Assembly (NCBI GenBank): GCA_036382775.1
Contig: DASVHD010000038.1
Coordinates: 1 to 64,000, forward strand
Direction: 5' to 3'
DNA: 64,000 bases
Source of the DNA: a bacterium
GTDB taxonomy: Bacteria > Hydrothermota > Tepidihabitantia > SM23-42 > JAOAFX01
Shown here: positions 1,611 through 24,190 of the stretch, piece after piece
How the letters are laid out: every line of letters begins with the position of its first letter
Numbering within the stretch: position 1 is the stretch's first letter
Notes under the pieces: generated by a model
What the model saw: only the letters and a program-made list of their open reading frames with translations
The model's database searches: none
What the model was told of the DNA's origin: nothing
Program-made: the position numbers and the translations under genes

Positions 1611-1790
1611 ACGATATTTCAGTAGTTGTTTGTCAAAGCGGTTATTTCAGCCAAGATGTAGAGTACCCGGCCTGCGGACGACACCCCCGGCGGTCGATCG
1701 AAGCACAGATCTAGCCAATTAGATCCGGAAACAGTAGCGCCATGGACTATATAGTATAATCCAATCCGATACAATATTCGATCCATTCTG
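1611..1790 (+). repeat. GC-rich intergenic repeat, copy 1 of 3
   Basis: Starts with GATATTTCAGTAGTTGT and reaches a GC-rich core near 1655-1720 (CCGGCCTGCGGAC, CGGCGGTCGATCGAAGC, CAGATCTAGCCAATTAG), then runs into the A-tract promoter. The same order of words recurs at about 4400 and 8292. Copies 1 and 3 align over their whole length, copy 2 only from the GC-rich core. Function unknown; it could be a structured leader, an insertion site or an old mobile-element end. Confidence 0.75.
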
Positions 1791-1842
1791 TTAATAATAA
1801 AAAAAACACACACCTTGTGGATGTTATAATTTGTTTTATAAT
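1785..1842 (+). promoter_or_regulatory. A-tract promoter module, copy A
   Basis: TTCTGTTAATAATAAAAAA (about 1786) is followed by a -35-like TTGTGG at 1815-1820 and a perfect -10 TATAAT at 1837-1842, spacing 16. The A-tract resembles an UP element. The block up to CAC is nearly identical in four other places in the window. It is placed to drive the lipoprotein gene at 1913. Confidence 0.65.
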
Positions 1843-1912
1843 GCTAAAAAGCATGCGAGGGGAAAAACATGATTCCATAATGGATTCATGATAATAATAA
1901 AAGGAGGTAAAA

Positions 1913-2521
1913 ATGTCTAGACGAGCATGTCTGTATTTGGGCGTCATTGTATGTATGGCTTTAATGACGTCCTGCCAAAGCATTGACAAAGCCATAGATG
2001 ATGAGTATGCTGTAATAGATGAACAAAACGATAATTCTAATGGACCGAATAGAGGGATAGACGACCTCGAACCGAGTCCCCCAGTAGTAATCCCTGAGTC
2101 ATTATGGTATCAATACGATTTCCATGAATTATCGGACGAGGAGATTGATTCTTTATATGATGCGGGGCTTGGGGATCAAGATGAATCGCCTAGCGATGGC
2201 TGGTCTGCAAAAGCATGGGCAGTATCGTGGGGATCTCTTTTCTGGAAGCTTGAATATTGTGGAGCGAGTACTAAAAAAGTTCCAATGGTTCCACCAAATG
2301 TTACTCTTTATCTTTATACGGAAATATGGAGCAAGCTTCATAGCGCTCAAAACTACACACTCAGAAAAGTTGGTGGCCCTTCCGAAACTTCCTGTGTTTA
2401 TAAGTGTTTTGTTTGGCTCTTTCTGTACTCAAAGAGTCAAACACAGGATTGGTGGTCATATGGAAAGCACCGCTGCAACGGCAGTGGCTTTGTCTACACG
2501 AATGCTTATCATACTCACTAG
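1913..2521 (+). CDS. Putative lipoprotein, unknown function
   Basis: The 202-residue product starts with a clear lipoprotein signal peptide: a basic start, a hydrophobic core and lipobox LMTSC with the lipidated cysteine at residue 21. The first third of the mature part is acidic and proline-containing, as in a linker. The C-terminal half is rich in Trp, Tyr and Cys (KLEYC, SCVYKC, HRCNG), suggesting a small disulfide-bonded domain. No family was recognised. A canonical AAAGGAGG precedes the ATG. It sits directly behind copy A of the shared promoter module and is closed by a strong terminator at 2528, so it is a single-gene transcription unit. Here the cassette lacks the small basic protein seen at 4610, 8545 and 24115. 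Confidence 0.75.
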   Translation: MSRRACLYLGVIVCMALMTSCQSIDKAIDDEYAVIDEQNDNSNGPNRGIDDLEPSPPVVIPESLWYQYDFHELSDEEIDSLYDAGLGDQDESPSDGWSAKAWAVSWGSLFWKLEYCGASTKKVPMVPPNVTLYLYTEIWSKLHSAQNYTLRKVGGPSETSCVYKCFVWLFLYSKSQTQDWWSYGKHRCNGSGFVYTNAYHTH

Positions 2522-2527
2522 ATTATC

Positions 2528-2556
2528 AAGCGGCTGGCCGTTTAGGTCAGCCGCTT
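2528..2556 (+). terminator. Rho-independent-type hairpin
   Basis: AAGCGGCTGGCC pairs with GGTCAGCCGCTT (12 bp, one G-T wobble) around the loop GTTTA, followed by TAATTCT. It ends the lipoprotein gene 7 bases earlier and separates it from the gene at 2578. Confidence 0.8.
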
Positions 2557-2577
2557 TAATTCTCGCCTGGAGAGGTA

Positions 2578-4050
2578 ATGTGTTATATGATTAGATCTTT
2601 ATTTATTCCTATTTTAATTATACTGAATTCATGTGCAAATGCGCAATCATGGGAACCGGCGGTAATACTTCCTAAACACGGTAGTGGTTTTATCATGAAT
2701 ACTGATCTGGTATGCTTAAACGATTCTTGTCTGATTGCCGCCTGGGACCAGGATACAAGCAACAATATGTATACCGACAATATTTTTGTAAGCATAAAAA
2801 ATAATAATACTTGGACCAATCCAGTTACCCTGTCAGAATCTAATGTTGAGTGCTCAGCTCCCCGTATATGTGTTGATCAAAATGGGATAGTCCATATAAT
2901 CTGGGGTGTAAACAGCATTGGTTTTATTGGACGCGTTGACAAGCTGGCATATTCATTTTGGAATGGGTCAAGTTGGAGCAGTTTTGAATACATTGCAAGC
3001 AATGCCACGATTTCCGAGGGATCGTACTACATTTCCTGCGATACTATTGGCAATTTACATATCATGTATGGCAATGAGACAGCGCCTGATCCAACCAAGA
3101 GGATTCGGCATATATGGCGAATTGGTAACACTTGGTATGGTCCAGAGGTCGTCGATGGTAGTCCGGATTTTCATTTTATTATTGATTCCCTAAGTATAAC
3201 CCGATTAACCTACCAGAATGCACTCCTACCCAACCACAATAATGATGTTTATTATAATCACCTTGATTCGACCTGTGGATCCTGGTTTGGTCCTTACGTG
3301 GTTCATTATAGTGATAACCTCGATACGCTGTCATATTGGCCAAGGATAGTGGTTGATCATCAATTAAGAAAGCATGTATGTTGGTCAGAGGACTTGAATA
3401 ATGATATATTAGCAGAACAAATATTATATTCGTTTTCTGATGATGATTCAAATTGGTCAAACTCCGAAGACGTGACTGGAAATCTGAACCTGGCGCTTAT
3501 GATTATTTGCAGTGCGATGATTGTGGATTCTTTTAATAATATACACATTGCGTATGGTTATTATGCAGACAGCAATCTTACCCAGGGGTGCATCGGATAT
3601 CAATGCCGACAAAATTCAACATGGAGCACTCCGTATATTATATCACAGAGTGTTACTTGTCTTGGAACAGCACGATTAGCACTGGATAACAATATTCTCC
3701 ATATAATTTGGGTTGCTGATACGTTGGGTGACAAATATGTTTGTTACCGGAGAAAACAGTTGACGGCGGTGGAAGAACAGAAAAATATCCCAATGTTTTT
3801 GAATATCGTTCCTAATCCAGTTAAAAATACGGTCAAATTATTATTCGCTGTTTCGACGACAGGTTTTGCTAGAATCCAATTGTTTGATGTTATGGGAAGA
3901 AAGATTATGGCTAAGTCGCTACTACTTAATAACGCTGGTATACATAGTGTAATGCTGGATTTAAGTAACATCGCAGCTGGAACATATTTCTTGGTGGTGA
4001 AAACTGATAACAATTCTTTTTCAAAACCATTAATAAAACTGAACGATTAG
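2578..4050 (+). CDS. Secreted beta-propeller-like protein with T9SS C-terminal sorting domain
   Basis: The 490-residue product has an N-terminal signal peptide (hydrophobic stretch at residues 5-18, cleavage near ANAQ). The body contains repeated units of about 50-60 residues with the pattern W-x-x-P/G...V/I...HIIWG (HIIWG, HIMYG, HIAYGY, HIIWVAD), like sialidase/BNR-type blades. Residues about 400-490 form a type A T9SS sorting domain: VPNPVKN, a Gly-rich FDVMGRK turn, then SNIAAGTYFLVV and a terminal K-P-L-I-K-L. It is therefore expected to be exported by the Sec and type IX systems and exposed at the surface. GGAGAGG lies just before the ATG; an alternative in-frame ATG at 2587 would also keep the signal peptide. 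No catalytic motif is visible. Confidence 0.8.
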   Translation: MCYMIRSLFIPILIILNSCANAQSWEPAVILPKHGSGFIMNTDLVCLNDSCLIAAWDQDTSNNMYTDNIFVSIKNNNTWTNPVTLSESNVECSAPRICVDQNGIVHIIWGVNSIGFIGRVDKLAYSFWNGSSWSSFEYIASNATISEGSYYISCDTIGNLHIMYGNETAPDPTKRIRHIWRIGNTWYGPEVVDGSPDFHFIIDSLSITRLTYQNALLPNHNNDVYYNHLDSTCGSWFGPYVVHYSDNLDTLSYWPRIVVDHQLRKHVCWSEDLNNDILAEQILYSFSDDDSNWSNSEDVTGNLNLALMIICSAMIVDSFNNIHIAYGYYADSNLTQGCIGYQCRQNSTWSTPYIISQSVTCLGTARLALDNNILHIIWVADTLGDKYVCYRRKQLTAVEEQKNIPMFLNIVPNPVKNTVKLLFAVSTTGFARIQLFDVMGRKIMAKSLLLNNAGIHSVMLDLSNIAAGTYFLVVKTDNNSFSKPLIKLND

Positions 4051-4399
4051 ATCGTGGGAACAAATTCCACCCTGCCCCGCTATGCATCATACGGGATTAA
4101 ACGAAAACTATAAAAAGTTGAATCATAGCCCTTAAAACCACCATAATCTCAGAAGATATTTCTATAATAGCAATTTTCGAAGGGATCTAGTAGAGTTTGG
4201 CTTTTTTTTAAAAATATTAGCTGTTGATTAGGTATAGAAAAAGGCCTAACTACGTATACATAGCGGATTGTTAGACCATTTTATTTTTGGACATCGCAAC
4301 CCATTAAATCTCGGCACGAATTCCGCAATACTATAAAATGTTAAATTTTCATCCATAAAACCGCCGTAATCCCAATGGATAATGTCACGATATGATACT
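4051..4399. other. Gene-free stretch with degenerate repeats
   Basis: No gene. It contains a degenerate copy of the flank found at 1340-1490 (GCTGTTGATTAGG, then TACATAGCGGATTGTTAG at about 4258) and two loosely similar CATAAAACC..C..TAATC words near 4130 and 4358. Confidence 0.5.
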
Positions 4400-4530
4400 A
4401 TATGAAATAACCGGTTTGCGGACTACACACCCGGCGGTCGACCGAAGTACAGATCTAACCAATTGGGTTCGAAAACTGTCGTGCCATGAACTTTACAATA
4501 TTACCATATTAAAATAAGACTCAATCGATT
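4400..4530 (+). repeat. GC-rich intergenic repeat, copy 2 of 3
   Basis: The core GGTTTGCGGACTACAC, CCGGCGGTCGACCGAAG, CAGATCTAACCAATTGG and GTGCCATGAAC follow in the same order as at 1655-1745 and 8346-8420. Substitutions are scattered, so the copies are old or diverging under constraint. Confidence 0.75.
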
Positions 4531-4585
4531 CTGTTAATAATAAAAAAAACATCTTGTTGCATAGGAGTGATGCAATGGTTATTCT
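4531..4585 (+). promoter_or_regulatory. A-tract promoter module, copy B
   Basis: CTGTTAATAATAAAAAAAAC, then CATCTTG and a -35-like TTGCAT at 4557-4562 with -10 TATTCT at 4580-4585, spacing 17. The sequence from the A-tract through GGTTATTCTATTATATT is almost identical to copy C at 8466-8526. It should drive the small basic protein and the ATPase operon behind it. Confidence 0.65.
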
Positions 4586-4609
4586 ATTATATTAAAAGGA
4601 AACTGGGAT

Positions 4610-4753
4610 ATGACAAAAAGAACTGCACATCGGAGTGCAACCGGTAGGAAACTTTACGCAATGCGTGATAAAAAGGGTCGGTTCAAGGACATCCAGACCT
4701 ACAAACCTGCTCATGACCAGGACATTAGAAGAACGTGCAAGAAAGAAAAATGA
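4610..4753 (+). CDS. Small basic protein, KLYA-RDKKGRF family, copy 1
   Basis: A 47-residue, strongly basic protein too short for usual ORF cut-offs. Its pattern is THRS-x-x-G-K/R-KLYA-x-RDKKGRFKDIQTY followed by a helical, Lys/Arg-rich tail. It is homologous along its whole length to the products at 8545-8688 and 23966-24115, which shows that the frame is real. AAAAGGAAACTGGG precedes the ATG. Similar short proteins occur widely as uncharacterised hypotheticals (family memory, not searched). In all three places the gene is the first after the A-tract promoter and precedes unrelated effector-like genes. A regulatory, antitoxin-like or nucleic-acid-binding role is possible but unproven. Confidence 0.8.
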   Translation: MTKRTAHRSATGRKLYAMRDKKGRFKDIQTYKPAHDQDIRRTCKKEK

Positions 4754-4892
4754 GGATAAATAAGCAAAATACCGATAACCATCGGGATCAAGTTTCGTCT
4801 TTCGTACAGATTTGGGTCCCTAGACGAACCTGCTCGTCTGTGAACGAATTAAGTGCAATAGCCTATACAACCTGGATAAAGTTGCCTACAAA

Positions 4893-7202
4893 ATGCTTGA
4901 CATTGATGGCATAATAAAGACTCAAAAGTTTTCTGGACAGTTCGCTGATGTTCGAGCAGATGCCAGTCTTTATTCCCATGAAGATGCTGCATCGTTGTAT
5001 GTCCAACATCCAGAAGGATTGCCACATCTCGAACGCAACACCTTGATAGTCGGCCCTCTTGGCTCAGGCAAGACAATTATGCTTAAAACACTCTTCACGA
5101 ACTTGAGCTCAAAACCTAATGTCATTCCAGTATTCGTCGACACCTTGAGATGGACTTCACAAATTGCCGGAGAAACGGAAACTTACAGGTCTGAAAGGTT
5201 ATCACCTCGTGGAATGGTAATGCTGGATGCAATGGCACTCGCCATTGTTATTGGTTTATGTGAGAGTGTTGGTGCATTTCAAAGTCCCAATCAATTTCAT
5301 TCAACCTGGTCACTTTTTTCTGAAGCATTTCGCACCACTGAACCCAATGAAATAAGGAGTATGTCAAGAAAGAGAATAAAGGATGCCCTAAAGAATGGGC
5401 TGCAACTTCCCGAATCCTTACCCACAGTGTTCACGGTTGCCAATGCGCTCGGAAATGACATTCGTAAGGAGAAAAATGCTTTACTCGTCTTGCTCGTCGA
5501 TCAGATTGATCAAGTATCCTCAAATTTCTTCTTGCCTATCGCTAGTTTGCTGCGAAGATCAAGTCACTATGTCTCAATCCTTGCAACTAGGCCATGCCCA
5601 ACAGCACCAGAACCAGAAGCTATCTCTGCAGATATCACCTCGGGAGACTCTTATCGTATAATCCAGCTCGGGAGAAGTGCAACAGGCGAGACTCCGACGG
5701 GATTTGTGCACCAGTTCGTTCAGGCGCTACCTTTGATAGAACCTTACAAGTCTGAAATTGAAGATCGAACACAGCTCATAGCAAACTTGATGTGGCCCTC
5801 TCTTCGCTTCGCGATCAGTACAATCCACGAATACATTCGTCTTCGATCGGCAGATAAGAATCCCGATGAATCATGGTTCCAATCTGTTCATGAGGTCGCT
5901 CGAAGCTATGAAGATATTGTGCAAGATGGCCTCAGAGCTTGGTCAGCAAACCCTAAGTCGATGGTGAAGGAATGGCGCCGAAAGGTTTCAGCAAAAAGAG
6001 GAAGGAATTCCACATCAATTGGTCGATCATTACTATTATTTACTAAGAGCGATTTGTTTGAGGATGTTAAAGGCAAACAAGCACAGCATATGATAAGAGT
6101 CGCACTCAAGAAAGGGATCCTCTTAACGGGCCCTACGGAACATTATGTACCTGGAGTTATTCCATCTGTTTGTGAGATTGCACCTCTCCTGCTCGTCAAT
6201 GATCCGAATATAGATATCTCTCGCTTTGATCCCAACCCCGTTGAATTGGAGATCACGGAAGAAACATTAGACAAATGGAGCAAACCTTTCAGCCGGACAA
6301 CGAGATCAGCCAAGAGAATATTCATATCCTACTGGATGAGCGACCCTGAAAAAACAGAGCATGTGTCCTTGGGGGATTTGATTACAACAAAGTTCGGGGG
6401 TTCAATCGAAGTGGCCACAGGTGTGTTGACTGGTTCTTCACGCTGGTCTCCTGCTATCATGGAAAAAATCTCCCCAGTCGATTTGGTTTTGTGTGATCTT
6501 TCAGTACCTCGAAGAGACATCATTGTAGAGTATGGCGTTGCGATCGGCACGCATATTCCAGTTATTCAATGCCTTGCCGACAATACAAAAGCATTTGGCC
6601 TCCCCAAATGGATAACCAATCGCCAGTTTCAATTCTTTAGTGGTACAGAAGAACAACTGTATCGACTCGAAACATCAATTGCAGCACTGCTCGAAAACAA
6701 TCCTGATGCGAAGAGTTGCTGGAAACGAGACTCCACTGGTAGAAATCTCGAAACTAGTCCAGAACCAAAACTCGTGATTTTTATTGGCCCAGCCAGTGCT
6801 TTATTACTTCATGAACGCATAAAGGCGACAACTAAAGAATCAAATCTTGATCTCCGGTTCCACCAGGCATCCTTTAATCTGGACAATCTTGAGGAAATGA
6901 TCAAACTTGTTAGGTCTGCTGGCACTCTTATCTTAGCATTTGACTATACAATAGATGATTACCTTGCTTGTCTTGGGGGAGGGATCTTCGCAACAAAACA
7001 GATTGGATATACCGCCAACAACAAGAGATACCACCGAACCATGTATTTGATTAATATGTCAAACGACAAGTCGTCCCTTGTTTTCCCGGGTCTACTCGAA
7101 TCACACCCACGTTCAGAAAGCTGCACCAATACCAGTGGCTTAGTATCGATGATTTCTAAACGATCTCGATACATACTTGATGTGCTCAAGAAAACAAAAT
7201 GA
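4893..7202 (+). CDS. P-loop ATPase with TIR/deoxyribosyltransferase-like domain
   Basis: The 769-residue protein has a Walker A motif GPLGSGKT at residues 54-61 and a Walker B-like LLVLLVDQID at about 197-206 (D203), so residues 20-310 form an AAA/STAND-type ATPase. Residues about 310-460 are helical. Residues 474-600 read RIFISYWMSDPE, DLVLCDLSVPRRDI, then VEYGVAIG with Glu546. This layout fits TIR or nucleoside 2-deoxyribosyltransferase-like folds, whose conserved glutamate is catalytic. A further alpha/beta domain fills 630-769. ATPase plus TIR-like architecture is typical of anti-phage NTPases that deplete NAD or nucleotides, so an immune role is inferred. The stop overlaps the next start (ATGA). 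No good Shine-Dalgarno precedes the ATG; a hairpin (AGACGA/TCGTCT) lies at about 4823-4840. Confidence 0.7.
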   Translation: MLDIDGIIKTQKFSGQFADVRADASLYSHEDAASLYVQHPEGLPHLERNTLIVGPLGSGKTIMLKTLFTNLSSKPNVIPVFVDTLRWTSQIAGETETYRSERLSPRGMVMLDAMALAIVIGLCESVGAFQSPNQFHSTWSLFSEAFRTTEPNEIRSMSRKRIKDALKNGLQLPESLPTVFTVANALGNDIRKEKNALLVLLVDQIDQVSSNFFLPIASLLRRSSHYVSILATRPCPTAPEPEAISADITSGDSYRIIQLGRSATGETPTGFVHQFVQALPLIEPYKSEIEDRTQLIANLMWPSLRFAISTIHEYIRLRSADKNPDESWFQSVHEVARSYEDIVQDGLRAWSANPKSMVKEWRRKVSAKRGRNSTSIGRSLLLFTKSDLFEDVKGKQAQHMIRVALKKGILLTGPTEHYVPGVIPSVCEIAPLLLVNDPNIDISRFDPNPVELEITEETLDKWSKPFSRTTRSAKRIFISYWMSDPEKTEHVSLGDLITTKFGGSIEVATGVLTGSSRWSPAIMEKISPVDLVLCDLSVPRRDIIVEYGVAIGTHIPVIQCLADNTKAFGLPKWITNRQFQFFSGTEEQLYRLETSIAALLENNPDAKSCWKRDSTGRNLETSPEPKLVIFIGPASALLLHERIKATTKESNLDLRFHQASFNLDNLEEMIKLVRSAGTLILAFDYTIDDYLACLGGGIFATKQIGYTANNKRYHRTMYLINMSNDKSSLVFPGLLESHPRSESCTNTSGLVSMISKRSRYILDVLKKTK

Positions 7203-8203
7203 AACTCTTTAACGCATACACCGATATTTTGCCGAAACCGGACAATGATACAATGTTGGTTTGGATTGGTGCTATTAGTTTCGAATCAAGATGCAATGGA
7301 TCTATAGAAGCTCTGCTCAATGAAAATATCCATCTTCATCGAGTAATCGCTTTTGATTATGCAACCAATATATCGCCAAGAAGTCAAGGAGAAGAAAGTC
7401 GTGCAATAAATCGAAATCAATTTGAAAATCTAGTCAAGGACAAAGGAGAAATACAAATTGTGCACCCTTATAGGTATGCAGAATTCATCGGGAAACTAGA
7501 AACACTATCAACTGAATTAGAGAATGCACATTCTTTGATACATCTAATAGTCGATATCACGTGCCTAACTAAAATACATACCATTGCGCTGGCATATTGG
7601 CTTATTAACAGAAGGGAAAGCTTCCCAGTAACCTTGGCTTACTCACAACCTGAACACTACGGGAATCCATCAAGAAACATTTGGGGAAAGGGTAAGTGGC
7701 TTAGTACCCTACTTGTGCGACTCGACCTAGATTCTACCGATCCTTTTGACTCTACGACACTCATAGCCATACTAGGCCATGAGGGCGATCGGCTCCGTTT
7801 AGCAATCAATGAAGTGGAAGCTAACAGGGCGCTTGTTATAAAAGTCTTGCCACTTGAACCAATGCCTTCTCGACTAGCCACCGTATCTGACATTCAGAAC
7901 GCCTGGCTGTTTTTTGAAATTCAAAATGGAATTAGGCAAGGGTTTACTCTGAAGACACTAAATCTTGCTAATTTAGATTCACTAATGCACTTAGTTCAAG
8001 ATGTATGTCGCAACGCTAAGAAAAAAACTTCTCGTATCGTCCTTTGCCCTTTTGGCCCTAAGCCTTTCGTGTTTGCATCTGCATTTTCGTCGCTATCTAT
8101 TTATTCAGAAAACACATGGCTTTCATATCCAATACCGACCTCTTATGATCCAGAATACTCATCGGGCTATAAGCAGACAACATGGTTTTCACCATTTATT
8201 TAG
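7199..8203 (+). CDS. Unknown partner protein of the ATPase-TIR-like gene
   Basis: The 334-residue product overlaps the ATPase gene by 4 bases (ATGA), so the two are probably translationally coupled and act together. The N-terminus (MLVWIGAISFESRC) begins an apparent alpha/beta domain. A buried strand LIHLIVDITCLTK near residue 120 is followed by a helix, giving a Rossmann-like impression. The C-terminal half has a second such segment (RIVLCPFGPKPFVFAS). No signal peptide or membrane helix is seen. I do not recognise the family. As partner of a putative immune ATPase it could sense the trigger, make or bind a nucleotide signal, or be the effector; the sequence does not decide. Confidence 0.7.
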   Translation: MKLFNAYTDILPKPDNDTMLVWIGAISFESRCNGSIEALLNENIHLHRVIAFDYATNISPRSQGEESRAINRNQFENLVKDKGEIQIVHPYRYAEFIGKLETLSTELENAHSLIHLIVDITCLTKIHTIALAYWLINRRESFPVTLAYSQPEHYGNPSRNIWGKGKWLSTLLVRLDLDSTDPFDSTTLIAILGHEGDRLRLAINEVEANRALVIKVLPLEPMPSRLATVSDIQNAWLFFEIQNGIRQGFTLKTLNLANLDSLMHLVQDVCRNAKKKTSRIVLCPFGPKPFVFASAFSSLSIYSENTWLSYPIPTSYDPEYSSGYKQTTWFSPFI

Positions 8204-8291
8204 CCAATTCTAGTACACGAATCAGGAGTTAGGTCCTGAAATTTGGGAACAAATGGGGGTTGAATCTCTACATTCTACATCGAAAAGATGG

Positions 8292-8465
8292 ATGATATTT
8301 CAGTAATTGTCTGTAAAATCCGTAATTTCAACCACTGAGAATATCCGGCCTGCGGACTACACTGCCGGCGGCCGGCCGAAGCGCAGAACTAACCAGTTAG
8401 GTCCGCAATTTATCGCGCTATGATCTCCATCATGTTATTTATTTTAAAATAAAGTTCAATCGATT
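8292..8465 (+). repeat. GC-rich intergenic repeat, copy 3 of 3
   Basis: Begins with GATATTTCAGTAATTGTCTG as in copy 1 and carries the core CCGGCCTGCGGACTACAC, GCCGGCGGCCGGCCGAAGC, CTAACCAGTTAGGTCCGCA. In this copy TGCGGAC pairs with GTCCGCA around two inner hairpins, giving a closed three-way fold, but the pairing is not preserved in copies 1 and 2. Confidence 0.75.
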
Positions 8466-8520
8466 CTGTTAATAATAAAAAAAACATCTTATTGCGTGTG
8501 AGCGATACAATGGTTATTCT
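8466..8520 (+). promoter_or_regulatory. A-tract promoter module, copy C
   Basis: CTGTTAATAATAAAAAAAAC followed by CATCTTA, -35-like TTGCGT at 8492-8497 and -10 TATTCT at 8515-8520, spacing 17. It precedes the second small basic protein. Confidence 0.65.
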
Positions 8521-8544
8521 ATTATATTAAAAAGAGGCTGTGAC

Positions 8545-8688
8545 ATGGCAAAAAAAACAACGCACCGAAGTACGTCAGGTAAAAAACTTTATGCCGTGCA
8601 CGACAAAAAGGGTTGGTTCAATGACATCCAGACCTACAAACCTGCTCATGGCCAGGACATTAAGCGGAAGAGCAAGAAAGAGAAATGA
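8545..8688 (+). CDS. Small basic protein, KLYA-RDKKGRF family, copy 2
   Basis: This 47-residue homologue of the protein at 4610 keeps the THRS-x-SGKKLYA core, a variant RDKKGRF segment (here HDKKGWFND), DIQTYKPAHG and the basic tail IKRKSKKEK. Differences from copy 1 are mostly conservative, and the leader of both genes is nearly identical, so duplication of the whole leader-plus-gene module is likely. The gene begins 25 bases behind the -10 box, with AAAGAGG upstream of the ATG. About 150 bases further on lies the membrane protein gene at 8845, probably co-transcribed. Confidence 0.8.
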   Translation: MAKKTTHRSTSGKKLYAVHDKKGWFNDIQTYKPAHGQDIKRKSKKEK

Positions 8689-8844: not shown

Positions 8845-9309
8845 ATGACTAGCTCAGAGAATTTATCAGCCTGCAAGGATGTCTTGTTGAAGTCGTACGA
8901 GCATACAGAAAGTCTGCATCGCTTTTTGGTTTCATTTCGGTTCAAAGTGATTGCGTATCTTGCTACTGTAAATGCGGCACTGTTTTACTTCATCTTCCGT
9001 GAACAGCCGGGTCAGATTGTTGCTGTCTTTATAACATTAATCGGAATACTCTCGGTCGTAGTACTTTACTTGCTCGATAGACGGACGCGGGAGCTTTTCG
9101 AGATTTGCATTAAGTCTGGGCAGGAGATCGAAGATCTGGCTGGAATCCCAAACAATAGTGGAATTTATCAAAAGTTAGGGACAAGAAAGCTTGGACGCTG
9201 GAGCCATGGTCTGGTTATTCGAGACACTTCCAGGGTGATCGTGCTTATTTGGATTGCAGTACTCATCATTTCGCTGTGCTGGCCAAAATTGTTGAACATA
9301 CACCCATAG
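8845..9309 (+). CDS. Small membrane protein with two-helix hairpin and C-terminal helix
   Basis: A 154-residue protein. A charged N-terminal helix (residues 1-32) is followed by two closely spaced membrane helices at about 33-50 and 56-75, a cytoplasmic amphipathic stretch from about 76 to 128 (DRRTRELFEICIKSGQEIED), and a last membrane helix at about 130-147. The hairpin-plus-cytosolic-helix layout recalls the SLATT/2TM effector class of bacterial immune systems, but the resemblance is architectural only. AGGAGG precedes the ATG. Like the ATPase operon it follows a copy of the shared promoter and a small basic protein. Confidence 0.7.
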   Translation: MTSSENLSACKDVLLKSYEHTESLHRFLVSFRFKVIAYLATVNAALFYFIFREQPGQIVAVFITLIGILSVVVLYLLDRRTRELFEICIKSGQEIEDLAGIPNNSGIYQKLGTRKLGRWSHGLVIRDTSRVIVLIWIAVLIISLCWPKLLNIHP

Positions 9310-9415
9310 GGCGGGCATAATGTGGCTACTTAACGTTTCACGCACTTGGGGTAAGGTCAGTATTATGGCTTATATAAAATTATTCATAATGAAAATATAA
9401 AAATTGTTGGAGGGG

Positions 9416-10173: not shown

Positions 10174-10341
10174 TTAAGGACCAGGGGGTGGTGGCGGAGG
10201 TGGTGTCGGCGGTGGCGGGGGAAGGATTGTATCATCACCGTATAATGGAGAATTAGAGTCCGTGAAAGCTGATACAGTCGTTGGTAACAAAATACTCATA
10301 ACAAGCATTACCATGGAAAGAATTTGTAGTAATTTTTTCAT
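10174..10341 (-). CDS. Tiny secreted proline-rich peptide under a sigma54 promoter
   Basis: A 55-residue product. MKKLL and a hydrophobic core to about residue 20, with a likely cleavage after VSAF, form a Sec signal peptide. About 15 ordinary residues follow, then a tail of almost pure proline (PPPPPTPPPPPPPGP) ending at the stop. The start at 10341 is chosen because AAAGGAGG lies just upstream and the signal peptide begins there; the longer frame to 10389 would include the promoter. The mature peptide of about 30 residues would form a polyproline II helix outside the inner membrane. It stands between a sigma54-type promoter and, 240 bases upstream, the end of a sigma54 activator gene, which suggests it is a target of that activator. 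Function unknown. Confidence 0.7.
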   Translation of the reverse strand: MKKLLQILSMVMLVMSILLPTTVSAFTDSNSPLYGDDTILPPPPPTPPPPPPPGP

Positions 10342-10365
10342 ATAACCTCCTTTATATACATTACA

Positions 10366-10380
10366 GCAAAAATCATGCCA
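10366..10380 (-). promoter_or_regulatory. Sigma54 (RpoN) -24/-12 promoter
   Basis: On the minus strand the sequence is TGGCATGATTTTTGCT: GG at 10379-10378 and GC at 10367-10366 with exactly 10 bases between, matching the TGGCAYG-N4-TTGCW consensus. Transcription would start near 10354, leaving a very short leader with the Shine-Dalgarno of the proline-rich peptide gene. Confidence 0.8.
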
Positions 10381-10581
10381 AGATAACATGGAAAAAAGTA
10401 TTGATATTCAAGGTGTTTTCTGCTGTTAAGATTATTGATATGAAAATTAACTGTAAAGAGTTTTACAGTATTATTTGCTTGGGCGTACTATGCCTGTTCC
10501 AGACTGCAATCCCATTAAAAGGAATATGTAAATGATTTTACACAAAAGAAAAAATTTTTACATTGATATTTTAGACGTGAG

Positions 10582-15456: not shown

Positions 15457-15660
15457 CTCCGATCCTCAAGTAATTATAGACAAGACAACATCTGTGTCAA
15501 TAGGACAGCTGTTTGAAGAACGGACGACCAGGGTAACTGTTGTGCTGTTAAAAATAAAAAAAACTCAATTCACCAAAAGTTAACGAATTTAGTATAATAT
15601 ATAATAAATGATCAATGGGCAGGAGATTTGATGCTATGAACAGTATGGGAGGATTATAGT

Positions 15661-16041
15661 GTGAGTGTTAATATTCAGGGTAAACAGATGGAAGATGAGA
15701 CAGTAATGATGCCGGTATATAAAAATGGCCGTGAATACTTGTTAGATGAGCTTTTGAAACTGAATATGTTGATCAGTCTGCGTTTGATACAATTTAGAAA
15801 TGATTATAGAACCAAGCATAACGATCATGCCGGTCTTTGTATAACCGACGGTGAAATTAACGATGCAGTTGGGGCGATATCTTCAAATCAGGAGAGGGAC
15901 CAATCTGAAACGACACAAAAGAGATATATACGATGGGACGAGATTGACGATTTGCGGTACAAAATTTCCGTAAGCGTTGAGCAGAGTATAAAAGAGCGAA
16001 CTTTTCTGCCCTTTTTTCAGTTGTCTGACCTCTTATACTGA
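15661..16041 (+). CDS. Hypothetical protein upstream of a phage-type remnant
   Basis: A 126-residue soluble protein starting with GTG behind GGAGGATTATAGT. It has mixed charge, with helical segments around residues 22-50 and 95-115, and no signal peptide, membrane helix or known motif. The stop lies inside the start of a peptidase G2-like fragment in another frame, so the two overlap by 13 bases. It is transcribed divergently from the giant regulator, with a weak promoter (TTCACC, 18 bases, TATAAT) near 15572-15600. Function unknown; a phage or tail-associated origin is possible from context. Confidence 0.55.
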   Translation: MSVNIQGKQMEDETVMMPVYKNGREYLLDELLKLNMLISLRLIQFRNDYRTKHNDHAGLCITDGEINDAVGAISSNQERDQSETTQKRYIRWDEIDDLRYKISVSVEQSIKERTFLPFFQLSDLLY

Positions 16042-16211
16042 GACCCTTGGACTATGGCGAGTATTTTGAATCTGTTGATGGTAAGGCAATCCATGCTGGT
16101 ATCTCTGTTTTACTGGATGGGGAAAAGATTAGACCAGCCAAAAAAGGTGAAATACTTATAGGTATTATATCGGCATCGCCTGGTGTCATAGGTAATTTAC
16201 CTATGGAATGA
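16029..16211 (+). pseudogene. Peptidase G2-like (IMC autoproteolytic) fragment
   Basis: The 60-codon open stretch reads LDYGEYFESVDGKAI, then VLLDGEKIRPAKKGEILIG and ISASPGVIGN. This matches, from memory, the conserved segment of intramolecular-chaperone/peptidase G2 domains of phage tail spike and fibre proteins. It has no start codon and only a short part of the domain, so it is a truncated remnant. It lies just before the PASTA membrane protein and amidase genes. Confidence 0.55.
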
Positions 16212-16305
16212 CCTAAAAAATATCTCAGTGATAATAGCCAAGGATAAATTGTGAAACCTGAATCTATGTTAAATAATTAGTATTGGAATAACAAAAGGAG
16301 GTTTT

Positions 16306-17106: not shown

Positions 17107-17173
17107 TCAACTGAAATAGAAACTACGAAAGCTGACGATTATGATTTCTTCTAGCAACTGTAAGGAGGCTTAG

Positions 17174-18172: not shown

Positions 18173-18192
18173 ACACGTAAAGCCGGTATAAT

Positions 18193-18246
18193 TCTGTTAA
18201 TAATAAAAAAAACATCTTCTTGCAGAATGCATGGATGTTATATAAA
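18193..18246 (+). promoter_or_regulatory. A-tract promoter module, copy D
   Basis: TTCTGTTAATAATAAAAAA followed by AACATCTTC, TTGCAG at 18220-18225 and TATAAA at 18241-18246 (spacing 15). The GC-rich repeat and the small basic protein are absent here. It drives the two-gene MBL-fold operon. Confidence 0.55.
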
Positions 18247-18275
18247 CTATACGAGAGGTTATTAGAAGAATAGTT

Positions 18276-18911
18276 ATGGAAAGCATCATATTACCCGTAG
18301 CAAGTGCGGCACACAGATTTGACAATTCGATTCCTATAATTGTTGACGACATAAAGAATTATGCCGACTTCGAAATGACGCGTTGCACATATTTCATTAT
18401 TGAATCAGATATACCATCTCCGGGCTGGATACTCGGATTGGGCAGATTTAAATTCCCTTTTTATCTATTGGGACTTTCAGGTATCATTTCGATACCGTTG
18501 GGTGTAGAAAATAGGTTTAATACGTCTGAAACCATTCAGTCATTATTCGATGAAATCGAGTCAAATACTAACTTGTATGTTACGGTCAATGATATCTGGC
18601 TGCCGAACAGCCTTTTTAAGAGAAATTATCATAAACGAGGATGTGTTTATCGGATTACGACAGAGCTATTCATCAAAGCATACGAATACCGGTATAACCG
18701 GATTCATAAGGAACAGTTTATTGAAAACTGCCGGGAATTAAGGGGTAGATTTACTTACTCTGACGATGAAACCAGCTCTTTTACATCATGGGCACAGGGA
18801 ATTGTCAAAAAGGCTAAAAACATATACCCGAAAAACAGGGAACTCGCCTTAAGATGGCAAGAAGAAAAGTCTAAAAAATCGGAAGATCCGAATAAACTGG
18901 ATATGCGGTAA
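18276..18911 (+). CDS. Hypothetical protein, first gene of MBL-fold operon
   Basis: A 211-residue soluble protein of unknown family. The N-terminal half is strand-rich with hydrophobic segments around residues 47-80 (GWILGLGRFKFPFYLLGLSG), too interrupted by charges and prolines to be secure membrane helices. The C-terminal 80 residues are helical and basic. It overlaps the MBL-fold gene by one base (TAATG), the mark of translational coupling, so the two products probably act in one process. It follows the same A-tract promoter as the putative defence-like cassettes. Confidence 0.65.
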   Translation: MESIILPVASAAHRFDNSIPIIVDDIKNYADFEMTRCTYFIIESDIPSPGWILGLGRFKFPFYLLGLSGIISIPLGVENRFNTSETIQSLFDEIESNTNLYVTVNDIWLPNSLFKRNYHKRGCVYRITTELFIKAYEYRYNRIHKEQFIENCRELRGRFTYSDDETSSFTSWAQGIVKKAKNIYPKNRELALRWQEEKSKKSEDPNKLDMR

Positions 18912-19738
18912 TGAGCAGTCTGAGCGTCACGTTGATCGATGTGGGATGGGGGGATTCAATCCTGATTGAATCCATGGATAGCAATGATGTTACTCGCTAT
19001 GCTATGGTGGATTCAAATGATACCATGTATTTTCGCTCGTCGTATATCTTTCTCGACAAATATTTCGAGAAAAAGAACGTAAAAATACCAGACGCCAAAC
19101 CGGTTTTTGAATTTGTCTTGCTTTCCCACGCCCACTCGGACCATGGCCAGGGTTTAAAGGCAATAATGAAAGACTTCGGAACAAAAAATTTCTGGTATCC
19201 CAAATCACTAAACTGGAGCAGTCTCGCGACGCTTATTGATTACGCCAACCGCTCGACAAATGTGAAACACCACGAATCGCTGGATACAACCAAAGTTCTG
19301 CCGGATTTTGGTGATGTAAAGATGATCGTCTTGTGGCCTAGCGCAGATGCGATTGACACGAATGAAAACAATAACTCGGTAGTTATTAAATTAAAACTAG
19401 ACAACAGTGTATTTATGCTTACCGGTGACGCCGAGGCTGGAGTGTGGGATAAAATTGCAAGTCAAATACCTATTGAAACTCAATTCTTTAAAGTTCCACA
19501 TCACGGTTCTATCAATGGGACCTTTGATCAATTAAATAACACACCTTGGGCTAGCGCCTGCCCACCCGGCGTGGAATTGGGCATTAGCAGTCATGTGCGA
19601 CCCTATAGCCATCCTGATCAGAAAGTTATTGACCTGTTTCAGACAAAACAGATGCACACGTACCGGACCGATCAGCACTATCACGTGACTTTCAGCACCG
19701 ATGGATCTTCATCAAGTGTAAAGTATTCGCATATATAA
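18911..19738 (+). CDS. ComEC/Rec2-type metallo-beta-lactamase-fold hydrolase
   Basis: The 275-residue protein has the MBL-fold signature SHAHSDHGQG near residue 75, the downstream ligand segments LTGDAE (about 176) and VPHHGS (about 197), and a C-terminal histidine in SHVRPYSHP. This set matches the ComEC/Rec2-like subgroup (nuclease or phosphodiesterase type) rather than a beta-lactamase. There is no membrane part, so it is a free-standing soluble hydrolase. It is coupled to the unknown gene before it. Soluble MBL hydrolases of this type also occur in immune islands, so nucleic acid or a nucleotide is a plausible substrate, but this is inference. Confidence 0.8.
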   Translation: MSSLSVTLIDVGWGDSILIESMDSNDVTRYAMVDSNDTMYFRSSYIFLDKYFEKKNVKIPDAKPVFEFVLLSHAHSDHGQGLKAIMKDFGTKNFWYPKSLNWSSLATLIDYANRSTNVKHHESLDTTKVLPDFGDVKMIVLWPSADAIDTNENNNSVVIKLKLDNSVFMLTGDAEAGVWDKIASQIPIETQFFKVPHHGSINGTFDQLNNTPWASACPPGVELGISSHVRPYSHPDQKVIDLFQTKQMHTYRTDQHYHVTFSTDGSSSSVKYSHI

Positions 19739-19810
19739 ATCACTCTAAGGGAGGTAAAATCTTTTGTTGCACGTAATTCATGCAGCGGAAATAATTGAAG
19801 GAGGTAAATA

Positions 19811-20272: not shown

Positions 20273-20309
20273 TGTGTTTTGATTTGGATTTAAAAAGGAG
20301 GTTTCCATT

Positions 20310-20642
20310 ATGTTTGAAACAGAGATAACAGATCTTATTGAGAAGATGTTAAAAGAAATAAAAACACTGCTGGGCGTTAAATGGAATGAGGTGAAAATCT
20401 ATGCGGAAAGTGAAACAAAGAAGTTCGGTCAAGATATTGCGGATATAGCCGCCTGGAAAGCGCAGGGAAAGATCGATGAGGAGCAGGCGCAAGTACTGAT
20501 AAGAATGCACCAGCGTTCGATGAAAATGGTCTTTACGGCATGCGAGGGAATAAGTCTGGTTCTTGCCGAACACGCCATCAATTCCGCGATCGCTGCGGTC
20601 AGGGAGACCGTAAACCGTCTTATCGGCTGGAATATATTATAG
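20310..20642 (+). CDS. Small helical protein, unknown
   Basis: A 110-residue all-helical protein: an amphipathic N-terminal helix, a charged middle (KIDEEQAQVLIRMHQ) and a more hydrophobic C-terminal helix with a phenylalanine/alanine-rich face. No signal peptide. AAAAAGGAGG precedes the ATG. It follows the lipoprotein gene closely; the pair could form an envelope-associated complex. Family not recognised. Confidence 0.6.
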   Translation: MFETEITDLIEKMLKEIKTLLGVKWNEVKIYAESETKKFGQDIADIAAWKAQGKIDEEQAQVLIRMHQRSMKMVFTACEGISLVLAEHAINSAIAAVRETVNRLIGWNIL

Positions 20643-20674
20643 ACAGCAATGTAGTATTTCCATGGCAGGTCAAT

Positions 20675-20857
20675 TCATTTTTTATATACTTTTTGCCAAC
20701 CGAGATCTTTCATCACCATCACCGCTTCGTTGTTGATACGGATTTTCTCGCTGCTTTTCAGTTTCAGCCACAGTACCTTGCCGTTTTTGGATAAAATTTC
20801 GCCGCAATAGACCTTTCCATCAACCAGTGTAACTTCGTACAAGTGACATTTCTTCAT
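20675..20857 (-). CDS. Small beta-barrel-like protein, unknown
   Basis: With the start at the second methionine (AGGAG 6-10 bases upstream) the product has 60 residues. Its pattern of alternating strands (YEVTLVDGKVYCGEIL, KVLWLKLKSSEKIRIN, AVMVMKDLGW) resembles an Sm/SH3-like small barrel. It is convergent with the preceding plus-strand genes. Function unknown. Confidence 0.55.
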   Translation of the reverse strand: MKKCHLYEVTLVDGKVYCGEILSKNGKVLWLKLKSSEKIRINNEAVMVMKDLGWQKVYKK

Positions 20858-21024
20858 GCCCGCTCCTAATACAAATAAGCTTACCAGCAAGTCTTGTTAT
20901 TAGTAAACTATCTCTGCAATATTTTACTTATTAATTTGTAGTTGACAATAGGATAATGTAGATTTTATTCAATAAAGATAATATAACCTACCACTGGCTA
21001 TGACATAATTAAGTCGCGATGTAT

Positions 21025-23952
21025 CTAGAATCCCAAACCATACATTACTACATACCAAACAACTTGTTTGTAGAAATCATGCCGTGTGCCGTTGACAACG
21101 AAGCCGGCGTTCAAGTAGCCGCAATCGGCGTAGAGCCCAAGCGACGGGCAATGTTCCAGATCATCAAAAGCGATATCCCACGTGGAGGCGGCTTTTGCAA
21201 TATTAAGAGCGCCGAGCAGATGAATGTTGAATTTAATGTCAAGTAACTTTATCTCAAGTAGTGGAAGACGTGCCGAAATACCGATTTTCCACATAATCGG
21301 CTCAATGAACTCATCGCGGTTGAAACCGGGTAAATCCTCGTAATCCAGACGCCGCAGCTGATAGGTCCCCGGCGGAGTGAATCCGCCCATGCTGAACCGT
21401 TCCTGTTCCGGCGTGTTGTTCCGGAACCAGCTGCCGCAGACATTCAGGGTCATTATGCTGGTAATAATATCCTGGATTCTGGGTTTCCAAAACGGCCATA
21501 ATACTTTTATCTTCACTCTTTCCCACCATTGTCGGTCAAGGTAACCCATTTTCATGGCCAAACTTGCCTTAAGGCCGTTCTGTGGAAAGACGATGCGGTC
21601 CAGGTTGTCCCAGTGCACGTGCGCCGTGCCCATGACCTGGAATCTCTGCCACTCGACCGGTTCGTCATTCATATGCGTGTTCGACACCGTACCCTCGAAA
21701 CCTGGGATCATGGCGATTTTATTGGCAATGTAAAACGGCAGGTCAAACATGCCGCTGAACCTATCTATATGCTGGTCATATTCGGTGCTGCCTGGATTCG
21801 ACGGGTATGTCAGTCTCTTCCAGTATCCGACCATTTCCGGTGTCAACGATTTTGCATCGCAATCCTGAAGTCCTAATTCCGATTTAGTGCTTAGAGGTAG
21901 TTCCCGGGCATTCTTTAACGTAAAATTATGGGCATAGCTCAGATAGGGCGACCAGCAGAACCACTGCCTCGCCCTGATTTCAGCAAAAAAATTGATCCCT
22001 TCATTCCTTTCAAAAGTCAATGAAGGAAATTCGATCGTATGGGACGATTTTTTGGTCGATCTAACCAACAACATGTCTTTTTCTGCCCCTTCAACAGATA
22101 TTGTTTTGAGATCGTATACTTCGTGAATGGATTTCAAGTCACCGATAACCGCTGCAGCACCGGGAGGTTTTCTGAAAGCACTTTCCAAGTGTCTTTTGTC
22201 CAGGCCTAGATCATTGACGCTTTTTAGTTGAAATCCTTTATTGCCGTATATGAAAAGCGTGTCCGAATCATAATTACTACATGCTTCCACGAATCTTACA
22301 CTATCGATACGTGGTTTGACGAAACCGCTGTCAATCAGTGCGAATTCGACGATTCTTTTCACTTCTTCAAAATTCAGCGCTCTTTTGCTTTGCACAAAAT
22401 TTGTATCTACGATATTTTTAATATAGTTCTCGATCACGGAATCTTCTAGATGTAAGTTCGTTACATCAATTGCTATCCGGTCGCTGCTGATGCGCTTCTT
22501 TTTCAAAAGAAACGTCAGGTCCCAGAAATCTGATGCAAGATTCTCAATCCGCGCCGAGACCTGTTCATAGTTTCCCAAACCGTAAACTCTCCTCATGGCA
22601 TCGCAGACATCTATTTTGTCAATATGGCTTCCCGGGCTTATCCGCAAGGTTTTACAGACTATATCTTTCTCACGGGTCTCATCTAAAAGCATAGAGTTGC
22701 CAGTATCGTCTATTTGTTTTATTTGCATGATGCCAAGCGTATGAATTCTGTAGGGCCATTGATCACCGGTATACCCTGGCAGCGACTTTTCTCTTGCCGC
22801 AATATCGTATTTTATTTTATCAATAGTGGTGCAAGCTGCCTCGTAACCCTTAGAAATCATGCCTTCCAGATTATCCAACGAAAAATCGAATTTTCCTTTA
22901 ACGTCGATTTCGATGCCTGTATTAGCCCGTGCTAAACTGTTTAGCACGTGAACATTGCGCGCCCAGTCGGCGGTTTTAAATTTTGCACCTATGCCCAAAA
23001 CTCCAGCCGAACCGATGGGGTCTTTTTTCCCGGTGATCTTAAAAGCATACACGGCGATTATGTAATCAACCGTATCGCCGGCAATTGTGATGGTATTATC
23101 CGGCACCCGCATCGTATCAAAGTGTGCAAATGCATCCACCGGTAAGTCGTCCAGCACGCCGCCGTCCACATATTGCATGCCGTGGATATCCATCGGTTCA
23201 AATACTATTGGCAGGGAGCCGCTTGCCCGGCAGGTAGTTGCGATAGTACCCTTTCGTATTAATTCTGTTTTTTGCGTGTTCATGTTGACAACGATCGCTC
23301 CAAATGGAATAGGCAGGCTGTCAAAATCAAACCCAGCCCAATAATCGTACATTAATGTATACCTGCTGATTTCGTGGATGAATCCCTGGGCTTTTCTGAG
23401 TCCTGCTCCTGCATCGTAAGCGAGATCATGAAGAAAGAACGGTTTAAACGACAATCGTAAGCTCACGTCGAGTCCTGGTTCGCGTGGTTTTTCGCGCAGA
23501 CGTTCACATATAGGTGAAGCTTGCCGTAGCTGCCGATCCGAAAAAACATTATCCCAGTTGATTTCTTTTTTTACCAGGGTTTCAAGACTGTCGGCTGAAT
23601 ACCCGCATGCATAAAGACCGCCAACGATCGCACCCATACTCGTCCCGGCAATGACATCGATGGGGATATTATTCCTTTCAAAAGTTTTTAGCACACCGAT
23701 ATGGGCAATCCCACAGTCACCGCCTCCGGACAACGCCAGACCAACCTTTACATTTCTCTGTAATCCTTTCACAGTATCGATGCCATTTGTTGTCGCGCTG
23801 GATTCTACTGCCCAGCAATTTGGAGTACATAATTGACGCTCCCATAAATCTTTTTCCGAACATGATGCCTTATTGAAATTGAGTCGGAGGTATAATATAG
23901 AATCACCTGTTTCGGCATACAACAGAATCAATGCGAATATGACTGGGGACAT
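21025..23952 (-). CDS. Patatin-like phospholipase fused to outer-membrane barrel
   Basis: The product has about 975 residues from the chosen start at 23952, where a signal peptide (SPVIFALILLYAETG) begins; the longer frame to 24063 runs inside the preceding small gene. Patatin motifs are GLALSGGGDCGIAHIGVL (oxyanion hole), GTSMG (catalytic Ser) and VDGG (catalytic Asp). A POTRA-like middle region and a C-terminal half of alternating strands ending in VWYVVMYGLGF follow, as in a BamA/Omp85-type barrel. This is the layout of type Vd autotransported patatins such as PlpD and FplA, which hydrolyse phospholipids at the cell surface. It sits 13 bases behind the small basic protein gene, in one transcript from promoter copy E. 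Confidence 0.9.
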   Translation of the reverse strand: MSPVIFALILLYAETGDSILYLRLNFNKASCSEKDLWERQLCTPNCWAVESSATTNGIDTVKGLQRNVKVGLALSGGGDCGIAHIGVLKTFERNNIPIDVIAGTSMGAIVGGLYACGYSADSLETLVKKEINWDNVFSDRQLRQASPICERLREKPREPGLDVSLRLSFKPFFLHDLAYDAGAGLRKAQGFIHEISRYTLMYDYWAGFDFDSLPIPFGAIVVNMNTQKTELIRKGTIATTCRASGSLPIVFEPMDIHGMQYVDGGVLDDLPVDAFAHFDTMRVPDNTITIAGDTVDYIIAVYAFKITGKKDPIGSAGVLGIGAKFKTADWARNVHVLNSLARANTGIEIDVKGKFDFSLDNLEGMISKGYEAACTTIDKIKYDIAAREKSLPGYTGDQWPYRIHTLGIMQIKQIDDTGNSMLLDETREKDIVCKTLRISPGSHIDKIDVCDAMRRVYGLGNYEQVSARIENLASDFWDLTFLLKKKRISSDRIAIDVTNLHLEDSVIENYIKNIVDTNFVQSKRALNFEEVKRIVEFALIDSGFVKPRIDSVRFVEACSNYDSDTLFIYGNKGFQLKSVNDLGLDKRHLESAFRKPPGAAAVIGDLKSIHEVYDLKTISVEGAEKDMLLVRSTKKSSHTIEFPSLTFERNEGINFFAEIRARQWFCWSPYLSYAHNFTLKNARELPLSTKSELGLQDCDAKSLTPEMVGYWKRLTYPSNPGSTEYDQHIDRFSGMFDLPFYIANKIAMIPGFEGTVSNTHMNDEPVEWQRFQVMGTAHVHWDNLDRIVFPQNGLKASLAMKMGYLDRQWWERVKIKVLWPFWKPRIQDIITSIMTLNVCGSWFRNNTPEQERFSMGGFTPPGTYQLRRLDYEDLPGFNRDEFIEPIMWKIGISARLPLLEIKLLDIKFNIHLLGALNIAKAASTWDIAFDDLEHCPSLGLYADCGYLNAGFVVNGTRHDFYKQVVWYVVMYGLGF

Positions 23953-23965
23953 ATTATTATGACAT

Positions 23966-24115
23966 CTATTTCTCTTCTTTGCTCTTCCGTTTGATGTCCT
24001 GACCATGGGCGCGTTTGTATGTCTGAATATCCTTGAATCGGCCCTTTTTATCACGCACTGCATACAGTTTTTTCCCAGATATACTCCGATGCGTAGTCCT
24101 TCTTGCTTTTGTCAT
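23966..24115 (-). CDS. Small basic protein, KLYA-RDKKGRF family, copy 3
   Basis: The start at 24115 follows a strong AGGAGGTAATGAA and gives 49 residues: MTKARRTTHRS, then SGKKLYAVRDKKGRFKDI and a basic tail ending IKRKSKEEK. It is closer to copy 2 than to copy 1 in the tail and has two extra N-terminal residues. It is on the opposite strand from the other two copies. As there, it is the first gene behind the A-tract promoter, here before the patatin-OMP gene. Confidence 0.8.
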   Translation of the reverse strand: MTKARRTTHRSISGKKLYAVRDKKGRFKDIQTYKRAHGQDIKRKSKEEK

Positions 24116-24138
24116 TTCATTACCTCCTGATTGTGTAT

Positions 24139-24190
24139 AGAATAACAATCGGTCGCTCTTATGCAATAAGATGTTTTTTTTATTATTAAC
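24139..24190 (-). promoter_or_regulatory. A-tract promoter module, copy E (minus strand)
   Basis: Reading the minus strand: GTTAATAATAAAAAAAACAT, then CTTA, TTGCAT at 24166-24161 and TATTCT at 24144-24139 (spacing 16). It matches copies B and C at almost every position, but no GC-rich repeat precedes it. It drives the small basic protein and the patatin gene. Confidence 0.65.

What the first reader, a model, noticed from the sequence alone, without database searches (positions are those of the whole stretch)
1611..24190. A reused leader module (GC-rich repeat + A-tract promoter + small basic protein) in front of unrelated effector-like genes
Five nearly identical A-tract promoters (about 1786, 4531, 8466, 18193, 24190 minus) precede different genes: a lipoprotein, an ATPase-TIR-like pair, a membrane protein, an MBL-fold pair and a patatin-OMP protein. 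Three are preceded by the same GC-rich repeat and three are followed first by a homologous 47-49 aa basic protein. The conservation of leaders against the diversity of cargo looks like a modular island in which a common control cassette drives exchangeable genes. The small protein could be an adaptor, repressor or antitoxin. Direct observation: the repeats and homology. Inference: the cassette idea and the defence role.
Basis: partly seen in the sequence, partly recalled or inferred. Interest (0 to 1): 0.78.

Follow-up and report, generated by a model that had tools for sequence, protein, structure and literature searches.

The report
Seven promoters sharing one A-tract element
One stretch of a little-known bacterium's genome holds seven promoters that carry the same 18-letter element at the same fixed place in front of unrelated weapon-, defence- and surface-type genes, and nowhere else in the genome, so these genes are probably switched or boosted together, although the "exchangeable cassette" idea does not hold up.

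Summary
The element GTTAANWAWAAAAAAAAC occurs seven times in the 3.06-Mb genome, all between 1.8 and 24.6 kb of the window, with none on the reversed control. All seven sit in front of a sigma70-type promoter with the -10 starting exactly 28-29 nt after the element, so the element lies at about -58 to -41. It is identical in five copies whose flanks are mostly at background, and paralogous genes behind three of them have scrambled silent sites. It is a constrained regulatory site; A-tracts there are not a habit of this genome's promoters.

The "module" dissociates. The GC-rich repeat belongs to a dispersed genomic repeat. The small basic protein belongs to an unnamed chromosomal family found in many phyla, without a recurrent defence partner and never behind this element. 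No cassette recombinase was recognised.

Best reading: a local regulon of accessory genes using an UP-position element; regulator unknown.

By the way: a kinase-TPR-sigma54 activator inside the interval is followed by a sigma54 promoter and a secreted proline-rich peptide, an arrangement recurring in the order.

The parts
1790..1807 (+). A-tract element copy 1 (GTTAATAATAAAAAAAAC), before lipoprotein + T9SS-type secreted protein
   Evidence: -35 TTGTGG 1815-1820, -10 TATAAT 1837-1842
4533..4550 (+). A-tract element copy 2, before small basic protein + ATPase/CARF-like pair
   Evidence: -35 TTGCAT 4557-4562, -10 TATTCT 4580-4585
8468..8485 (+). A-tract element copy 3, before small basic protein + 8xMP-like membrane protein
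   Evidence: -35 TTGCGT 8492-8497, -10 TATTCT 8515-8520
15547..15564 (+).
   Evidence: -35 TTCACC, -10 TATAAT 15593-15598
18196..18213 (+). A-tract element copy 4, before 211-aa protein + MBL-fold protein
   Evidence: -35 TTGCAG, -10 TAAACT 18243-18248
24173..24190 (-). A-tract element copy 5, before small basic protein + patatin-OMP protein
   Evidence: -35 TTGCAT, -10 TATTCT 24144-24139
24550..24567 (+).
   Evidence: -35 TTGAAC, -10 TATAGT 24596-24601
1613..1730 (+). GC-rich repeat copy 1 (part of a dispersed genomic repeat)
4404..4527 (+). GC-rich repeat copy 2; further pieces of the same dispersed repeat at 4057-4160 and 4258-4326
8290..8462 (+). GC-rich repeat copy 3
4610..4753 (+). small basic protein, 47 aa
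   Evidence: family; no Pfam/NCBIfam match
8545..8688 (+). small basic protein, 47 aa
   Evidence: no Pfam/NCBIfam/PHROG match; AlphaFold beta-beta-alpha, mean pLDDT 81
23966..24115 (-). small basic protein, 49 aa
1913..2521 (+). lipoprotein-like 202 aa, no family
2578..4050 (+). secreted protein with C-terminal T9SS sorting domain
   Evidence: PF18962 E 4.5e-10, TIGR04183 E 3.7e-11
4893..7202 (+). 769-aa P-loop ATPase (only the N-terminal P-loop recognised)
7199..8203 (+). 334-aa CARF-like protein
   Evidence: PADLOC CARF6 E 4.4e-13
8845..9309 (+). 8xMP-like membrane protein, 154 aa
   Evidence: PF24838 at threshold, 30.1 vs 30 bits
18276..18911 (+). 211-aa protein, no family
18911..19738 (+). 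MBL-fold hydrolase (ComEC/LmuA/RT-associated MBL-like)
21025..23952 (-). patatin-OMP protein (likely start 23952; the mechanical ORF start 24063 lies inside the small gene)
   Evidence: PF01734 E 2.5e-27, weak Omp85
24682..31259 (+). class II lanthipeptide operon: 202-aa protein, C39 peptidase-ABC exporter, precursor-like ORF 27630-27863, LanM 27963-31259
   Evidence: PF03412, PF13575, PF05147; precursor by inspection

Best explanation
A local regulon. Seven sigma70-type promoters in a 22.8-kb part of a low-GC accessory region share an 18-bp element, GTTAANWAWAAAAAAAAC, fixed at about -58 to -41. It most likely works as an upstream activating site: a protein bound to the G-TTAA...A8-C box, together with the A-tract's pull on the RNA polymerase alpha subunit (UP-element effect), raises transcription of all seven units at once (lipoprotein/secreted protein, ATPase-CARF pair, 8xMP-like protein, a WHD fragment, MBL pair, patatin-OMP, lanthipeptide operon). 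Some copies spread by local duplication of promoter plus small gene (copies 2, 3, 5) or of promoter plus upstream repeat (copies 1-3); the element was then kept by selection while everything around it drifted. The GC-rich repeat and the small basic protein are passengers of those duplications, not parts of one machine. Shown: sequence, uniqueness, rigid spacing, conservation against drift, dissociation of the three parts. Inferred: co-regulation, the sign (activation), and the existence of a dedicated binding protein.
For: 7 of 7 genome-wide matches lie in this stretch, control 0. The best -10 is at +28/+29 from the element in all seven; rotation test 0 of 20000, and p = 0.0001 with five copies taken as independent. 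The element is 15-18/18 conserved between copies whose upstream flanks are mostly 18-40% identical (45-57% for c2-c3 and c1-c3), and four-fold silent sites of the small-gene paralogues agree in only 6/9, 4/10 and 3/13. A-runs of 6 or more at the UP position occur in 3/162 upstream regions sampled elsewhere in this genome and 0/16 in the rest of the window, against 4/10 regions sampled here. Dispersed-repeat copies elsewhere have no element. Small-protein relatives have no element.
Against: No regulator is identified, and no expression data exist. The -35/-10 calls use an E. coli-like matrix. No related genome carries the element in a promoter, so conservation across species cannot be tested. 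Copies 1-5 could be partly young or homogenised by gene conversion.
Confidence: 0.55

Rival explanations
1. Plain UP element plus local duplication: the A-tract only strengthens promoters through the polymerase alpha subunit, and it is shared because the promoters descend from one another. No dedicated regulator exists.
For: The position -58 to -41 is that of UP elements; copies 1-3 and 2/3/5 share longer homology.
Against: UP elements are degenerate A/T sequences, yet here the bounding G and C and the TTAA are kept in all seven, while the core promoters of copies 6 and 7 are unrelated. The element is absent from the rest of the genome.
Confidence: 0.3
2. Exchangeable cassette: the leader (repeat + promoter + small protein) is a mobile or recombinogenic module into which new cargo is swapped, as in an integron or a defence hotspot.
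For: Similar leaders before different cargo at three places; cargo rare in the phylum (334-aa and 211-aa proteins in 1 of 147 genomes).
Against: The three parts do not travel together; no recombinase except an IS110 transposase in the genes scanned; no attC-like pair was recognised by eye; the small protein is absent from plasmid and phage records and nearly absent from viral contigs.
Confidence: 0.05
3. The small basic protein is the regulator that binds the element (autoregulated, three copies).
For: Basic, predicted beta-beta-alpha fold, encoded behind three of the elements.
Against: Relatives in many genomes, bacterial and archaeal, have no such element upstream; no family or fold match.
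Confidence: 0.06
4. The kinase-TPR-sigma54 activator encoded inside the interval (10582-15456) controls the A-tract promoters.
For: It lies between copies 3 and 6 and carries a Fis-type HTH.
Against: It has a ready target elsewhere: a sigma54 promoter at 10380 minus with two perfect TGTAAA-N4-TTTACA palindromes 75 bp apart. The A-tract promoters have no GG-N10-GC sigma54 pattern by inspection.
Confidence: 0.04

Closest known systems
UP element of sigma70 promoters (e.g. rrn P1; from general knowledge)
   Same: Position about -58 to -41, A/T-rich, A-tract next to the -35
   Different: An almost invariant 18-bp sequence with fixed G and C ends, restricted to one accessory stretch of the genome
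Single-regulator local regulon with a common operator in an accessory island
   Same: Several separate operons, one site type, fixed position relative to the promoter
   Different: No regulator gene recognised for it; the binding protein, if any, is unknown
Integron gene cassette array
   Same: Diverse accessory cargo in neighbouring units
   Different: No integrase, no attC recognised, promoters inside the shared part, repeat dispersed through the genome
Defence island
   Same: CARF-like and MBL-fold proteins resembling defence components
   Different: Only some cargo; the rest is antibacterial, secreted or envelope-related

Membership tests
UP element | A/T-rich DNA at about -60 to -38 of a sigma70-type promoter | tested here: met
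   -10 at +28/+29 after the element in 7/7
UP element | Bound by the alpha C-terminal domain and stimulates transcription | not testable with these tools
   needs in vitro transcription
Operator of a dedicated regulator | Conserved sequence of defined length shared by several unrelated promoters | tested here: met
Operator of a dedicated regulator | Cognate DNA-binding protein | tested here: inconclusive
   HTH-type candidates in the interval: the sigma54 activator and a short WHD fragment; neither shown to bind
Sigma54 promoter | GG-N10-GC at -24/-12 | tested here: not met
   A-tract promoters are not among the hits; AA at the GG position in copy 2 by inspection
Integron gene cassette | Tyrosine recombinase IntI nearby | tested here: not met
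   only an IS110 transposase among the window proteins scanned; the contig starts at window base 1, so upstream sequence is unseen
Integron gene cassette | attC sites between cassettes | tested here: inconclusive
   no conserved RYYYAAC/GTTRRRY pair by eye in the GC repeat; no dedicated attC model run
Toxin-antitoxin (small protein as antitoxin) | Small gene constantly paired with a toxin gene | tested here: not met
   no recurrent neighbour family across 80 loci beyond lineage-specific contexts
Defence system cargo | Match to known defence families | tested here: inconclusive
   CARF6 E 4e-13; MBL similar to LmuA and RT-associated MBL, E 1e-12 to 2e-11; most other units none

The most novel reading that the evidence does not exclude
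An unknown regulator, dedicated to this island, recognises an 18-bp G-TTAA-A8-C box at the UP position and turns on a mixed arsenal (lanthipeptide, patatin-OMP, CARF and MBL proteins, surface proteins) as one block; newly acquired genes become members by landing behind a duplicated promoter.
Probability: 0.25. Interest if true: 0.6.

Novelty: new variant of a known kind. Interest (0 to 1): 0.42.

Why it matters
If the seven units respond together, this is a compact example of how newly gained defence and competition genes are brought under one switch, using an element placed where it can act directly on RNA polymerase. It also points to an unnamed small-protein family shared by many bacterial phyla and some archaea that no protein library tested here describes.

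Tried and rejected
Cassette/integron reading: parts dissociate, no recombinase. Sigma54 control of the A-tract promoters: GG/GC pattern absent. Matches of the element in related genomes and viral contigs: inspected, judged incidental or inside coding sequence. Rfam: no match. tRNA-linked insertion: no tRNA in the window. Small protein in plasmid and phage records: none; four viral contigs only. PDB by sequence and by fold: nothing significant. Cargo relatives on plasmids and in the phylum: none. Paper searches gave nothing relevant.

Full report
WHAT IS THERE. A generalised element, GTTAANWAWAAAAAAAAC, finds seven places in the whole genome of 3,055,295 bases, every one in the window between 1790 and 24567, and none on the reversed-pattern control. 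An estimate from base composition gives 0.0005-0.014 matches per genome. The pattern was derived from the window copies, so the count inside the window is not independent, but the absence elsewhere is.

POSITION. A sigma70 matrix scan of the 82 bases after each element gives a best promoter whose -10 hexamer starts 28 or 29 bases after the element in all seven copies. Rotating the score profiles never reproduced this in 20,000 trials for all seven, and did so with p = 0.0001 for five copies taken as independent. The element therefore occupies about -58 to -41, the place of an UP element. The position of UP elements is general knowledge, not tested here.

CONSTRAINT. Copies 2, 3 and 5 are followed by paralogous 47-49 aa genes that have drifted at four-fold silent sites (6 of 9, 4 of 10 and 3 of 13 identical), whereas the element is 18/18 identical. 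Copies 6 and 7 retain 17 and 16 of 18 positions although upstream flanks and core promoters are unrelated to the others. Elsewhere in this genome, A-runs of six or more at this position occur in 3 of 162 sampled upstream regions. So the element is most simply explained as selected for, and it is not a habit of this genome's promoters.

THE MODULE FALLS APART. (i) The GC-rich repeat in front of copies 1-3 is part of a repeat family with 16 matches on contigs C4, C21, C29, C36, C38 and C39; the element occurs nowhere outside this stretch, so no repeat copy elsewhere has it. (ii) The small basic protein belongs to a family with at least 102 relatives in named genomes (Proteobacteria, Verrucomicrobia, Aminicenantes, Gemmatimonadetes, Spirochaetes, Chloroflexi, two archaea and others), absent from the plasmid and phage records and present in only 2 of 147 genomes of its own phylum. 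Its neighbours are lineage-specific, for instance adenylosuccinate synthase-like and aminotransferase-like genes in Aminicenantes (identities read from the sequence by eye), with no recurrent toxin or defence partner. None of the fetched relatives has the A-tract element. Many relatives carry Lys/Ala-rich tails. AlphaFold gives a beta-beta-alpha fold at mean pLDDT 81 in the best model, but the five models ranged from 53 to 81, and there was no significant fold match. (iii) Homology lengths differ between copies: 2 and 3 share about 250 bp including the small gene, 1 and 3 share the upstream repeat but not the sequence after the element, and 4, 6 and 7 share the element or little more.

CARGO. 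Behind the elements: lipoprotein and T9SS-sorted protein; 769-aa P-loop ATPase plus CARF-like protein; a membrane protein at the 8xMP threshold; a short WHD-like ORF; a 211-aa protein plus an MBL-fold hydrolase similar to LmuA and RT-associated MBL; patatin-OMP; lanthipeptide operon. Two of these proteins have no relative in the 146 other genomes searched in the phylum. The first 28 kb are 37-46% GC (lower in places beyond), against 52-54% in most of the last 10 kb of the window. This fits an acquired accessory region mixing offence, defence and envelope genes.

MECHANISM. Most likely the element is an upstream activating box, with or without a dedicated binding protein, that raises transcription of all seven units. 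Conservation of the bounding G and C and of TTAA speaks for a specific protein; the exact position also allows direct action on the polymerase. I put a shared activating site with a dedicated protein plus UP effect at 0.55 and a pure UP element spread by duplication at 0.30. The sigma54 activator in the interval is not a good candidate, because it has its own sigma54 promoter and palindromic sites.

A SEPARATE FINDING IN THE SAME INTERVAL. The protein at 10582-15456 (minus, 1624 aa) joins a Ser/Thr kinase domain, an AAA domain, TPRs, a sigma54 activation domain and a Fis-type HTH. About 200 bp after its stop codon, on the same strand, is a near-consensus sigma54 promoter (TGGCATGATTTTTGCT at 10380) with two perfect TGTAAA-N4-TTTACA palindromes upstream, followed by a short secreted peptide ending in a proline run. 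A paralogue on contig C37 and several relatives in the order show the same order of parts, with peptides such as MKKFFAYVVISLLFVSMFGIAIQSVSNNIKDDAPVISATLDFISPAVAYADSDTVSVPNMPPPPPID. Among the loci inspected, ten gave a peptide with a proline-rich end, not all equally convincing (that of L184 lacks an obvious signal peptide). rpoN is present in the genome. This looks like a sigma54-driven peptide circuit, perhaps signalling, and deserves its own study.

LIMITS. One genome, no transcripts, promoter calls with an E. coli-like matrix, contig edge at window base 1, and no second genome with the element.

Noticed in passing
window 10174-15456, minus strand; paralogue on contig C37 (L164:9464-14770, minus); relatives L181, L182, L185-L189: A roughly 1620-aa Ser/Thr kinase-AAA-TPR-sigma54 activator-Fis HTH fusion is followed by a near-consensus sigma54 promoter and a secreted peptide of about 55-70 aa, in most cases with an AYADSDTV-like region, and with a proline-rich end. 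It recurs across genera of the order and looks like a self-contained sigma54 peptide circuit.
   Followed up: partly
window 10452-10467 and 10527-10542: Two perfect palindromes TGTAAA-N4-TTTACA 75 bp apart upstream of the sigma54 promoter at 10380 minus, the only two in the window: likely binding sites of the activator.
   Followed up: partly
L018-L097 and window 4610, 8545, 24115: Unnamed small basic protein family (core KLYAVRDxxGxFxDIQxYxxAH) in many bacterial phyla and two archaea, often with Lys/Ala-rich tails; no Pfam, NCBIfam, PHROG or PDB match.
   Followed up: partly
window 24682-33608: Class II lanthipeptide operon (exporter with C39 peptidase, precursor-like ORF 27630-27863, LanM) followed by an NTPase-TPR protein.
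   Followed up: no
window 4057-4326, 1455-1488; L011, L012; contigs C4, C21, C29, C36, C39: Dispersed intergenic repeat family of up to about 300 bp, 16 matches in the genome, none in three other genomes of the same family.
   Followed up: partly
window 15661-16240: A 126-aa ORF with a WHD-like match, then an out-of-frame stretch that by eye resembles a Peptidase_G2-type domain: possibly a broken gene.
   Followed up: no
window 209-1276, minus strand: IS110-family transposase 208 bp from the contig edge, a likely cause of the assembly break there.
   Followed up: no
window 38902-41934: Peptidase C25 (gingipain-type) protein with a T9SS sorting domain.
   Followed up: no
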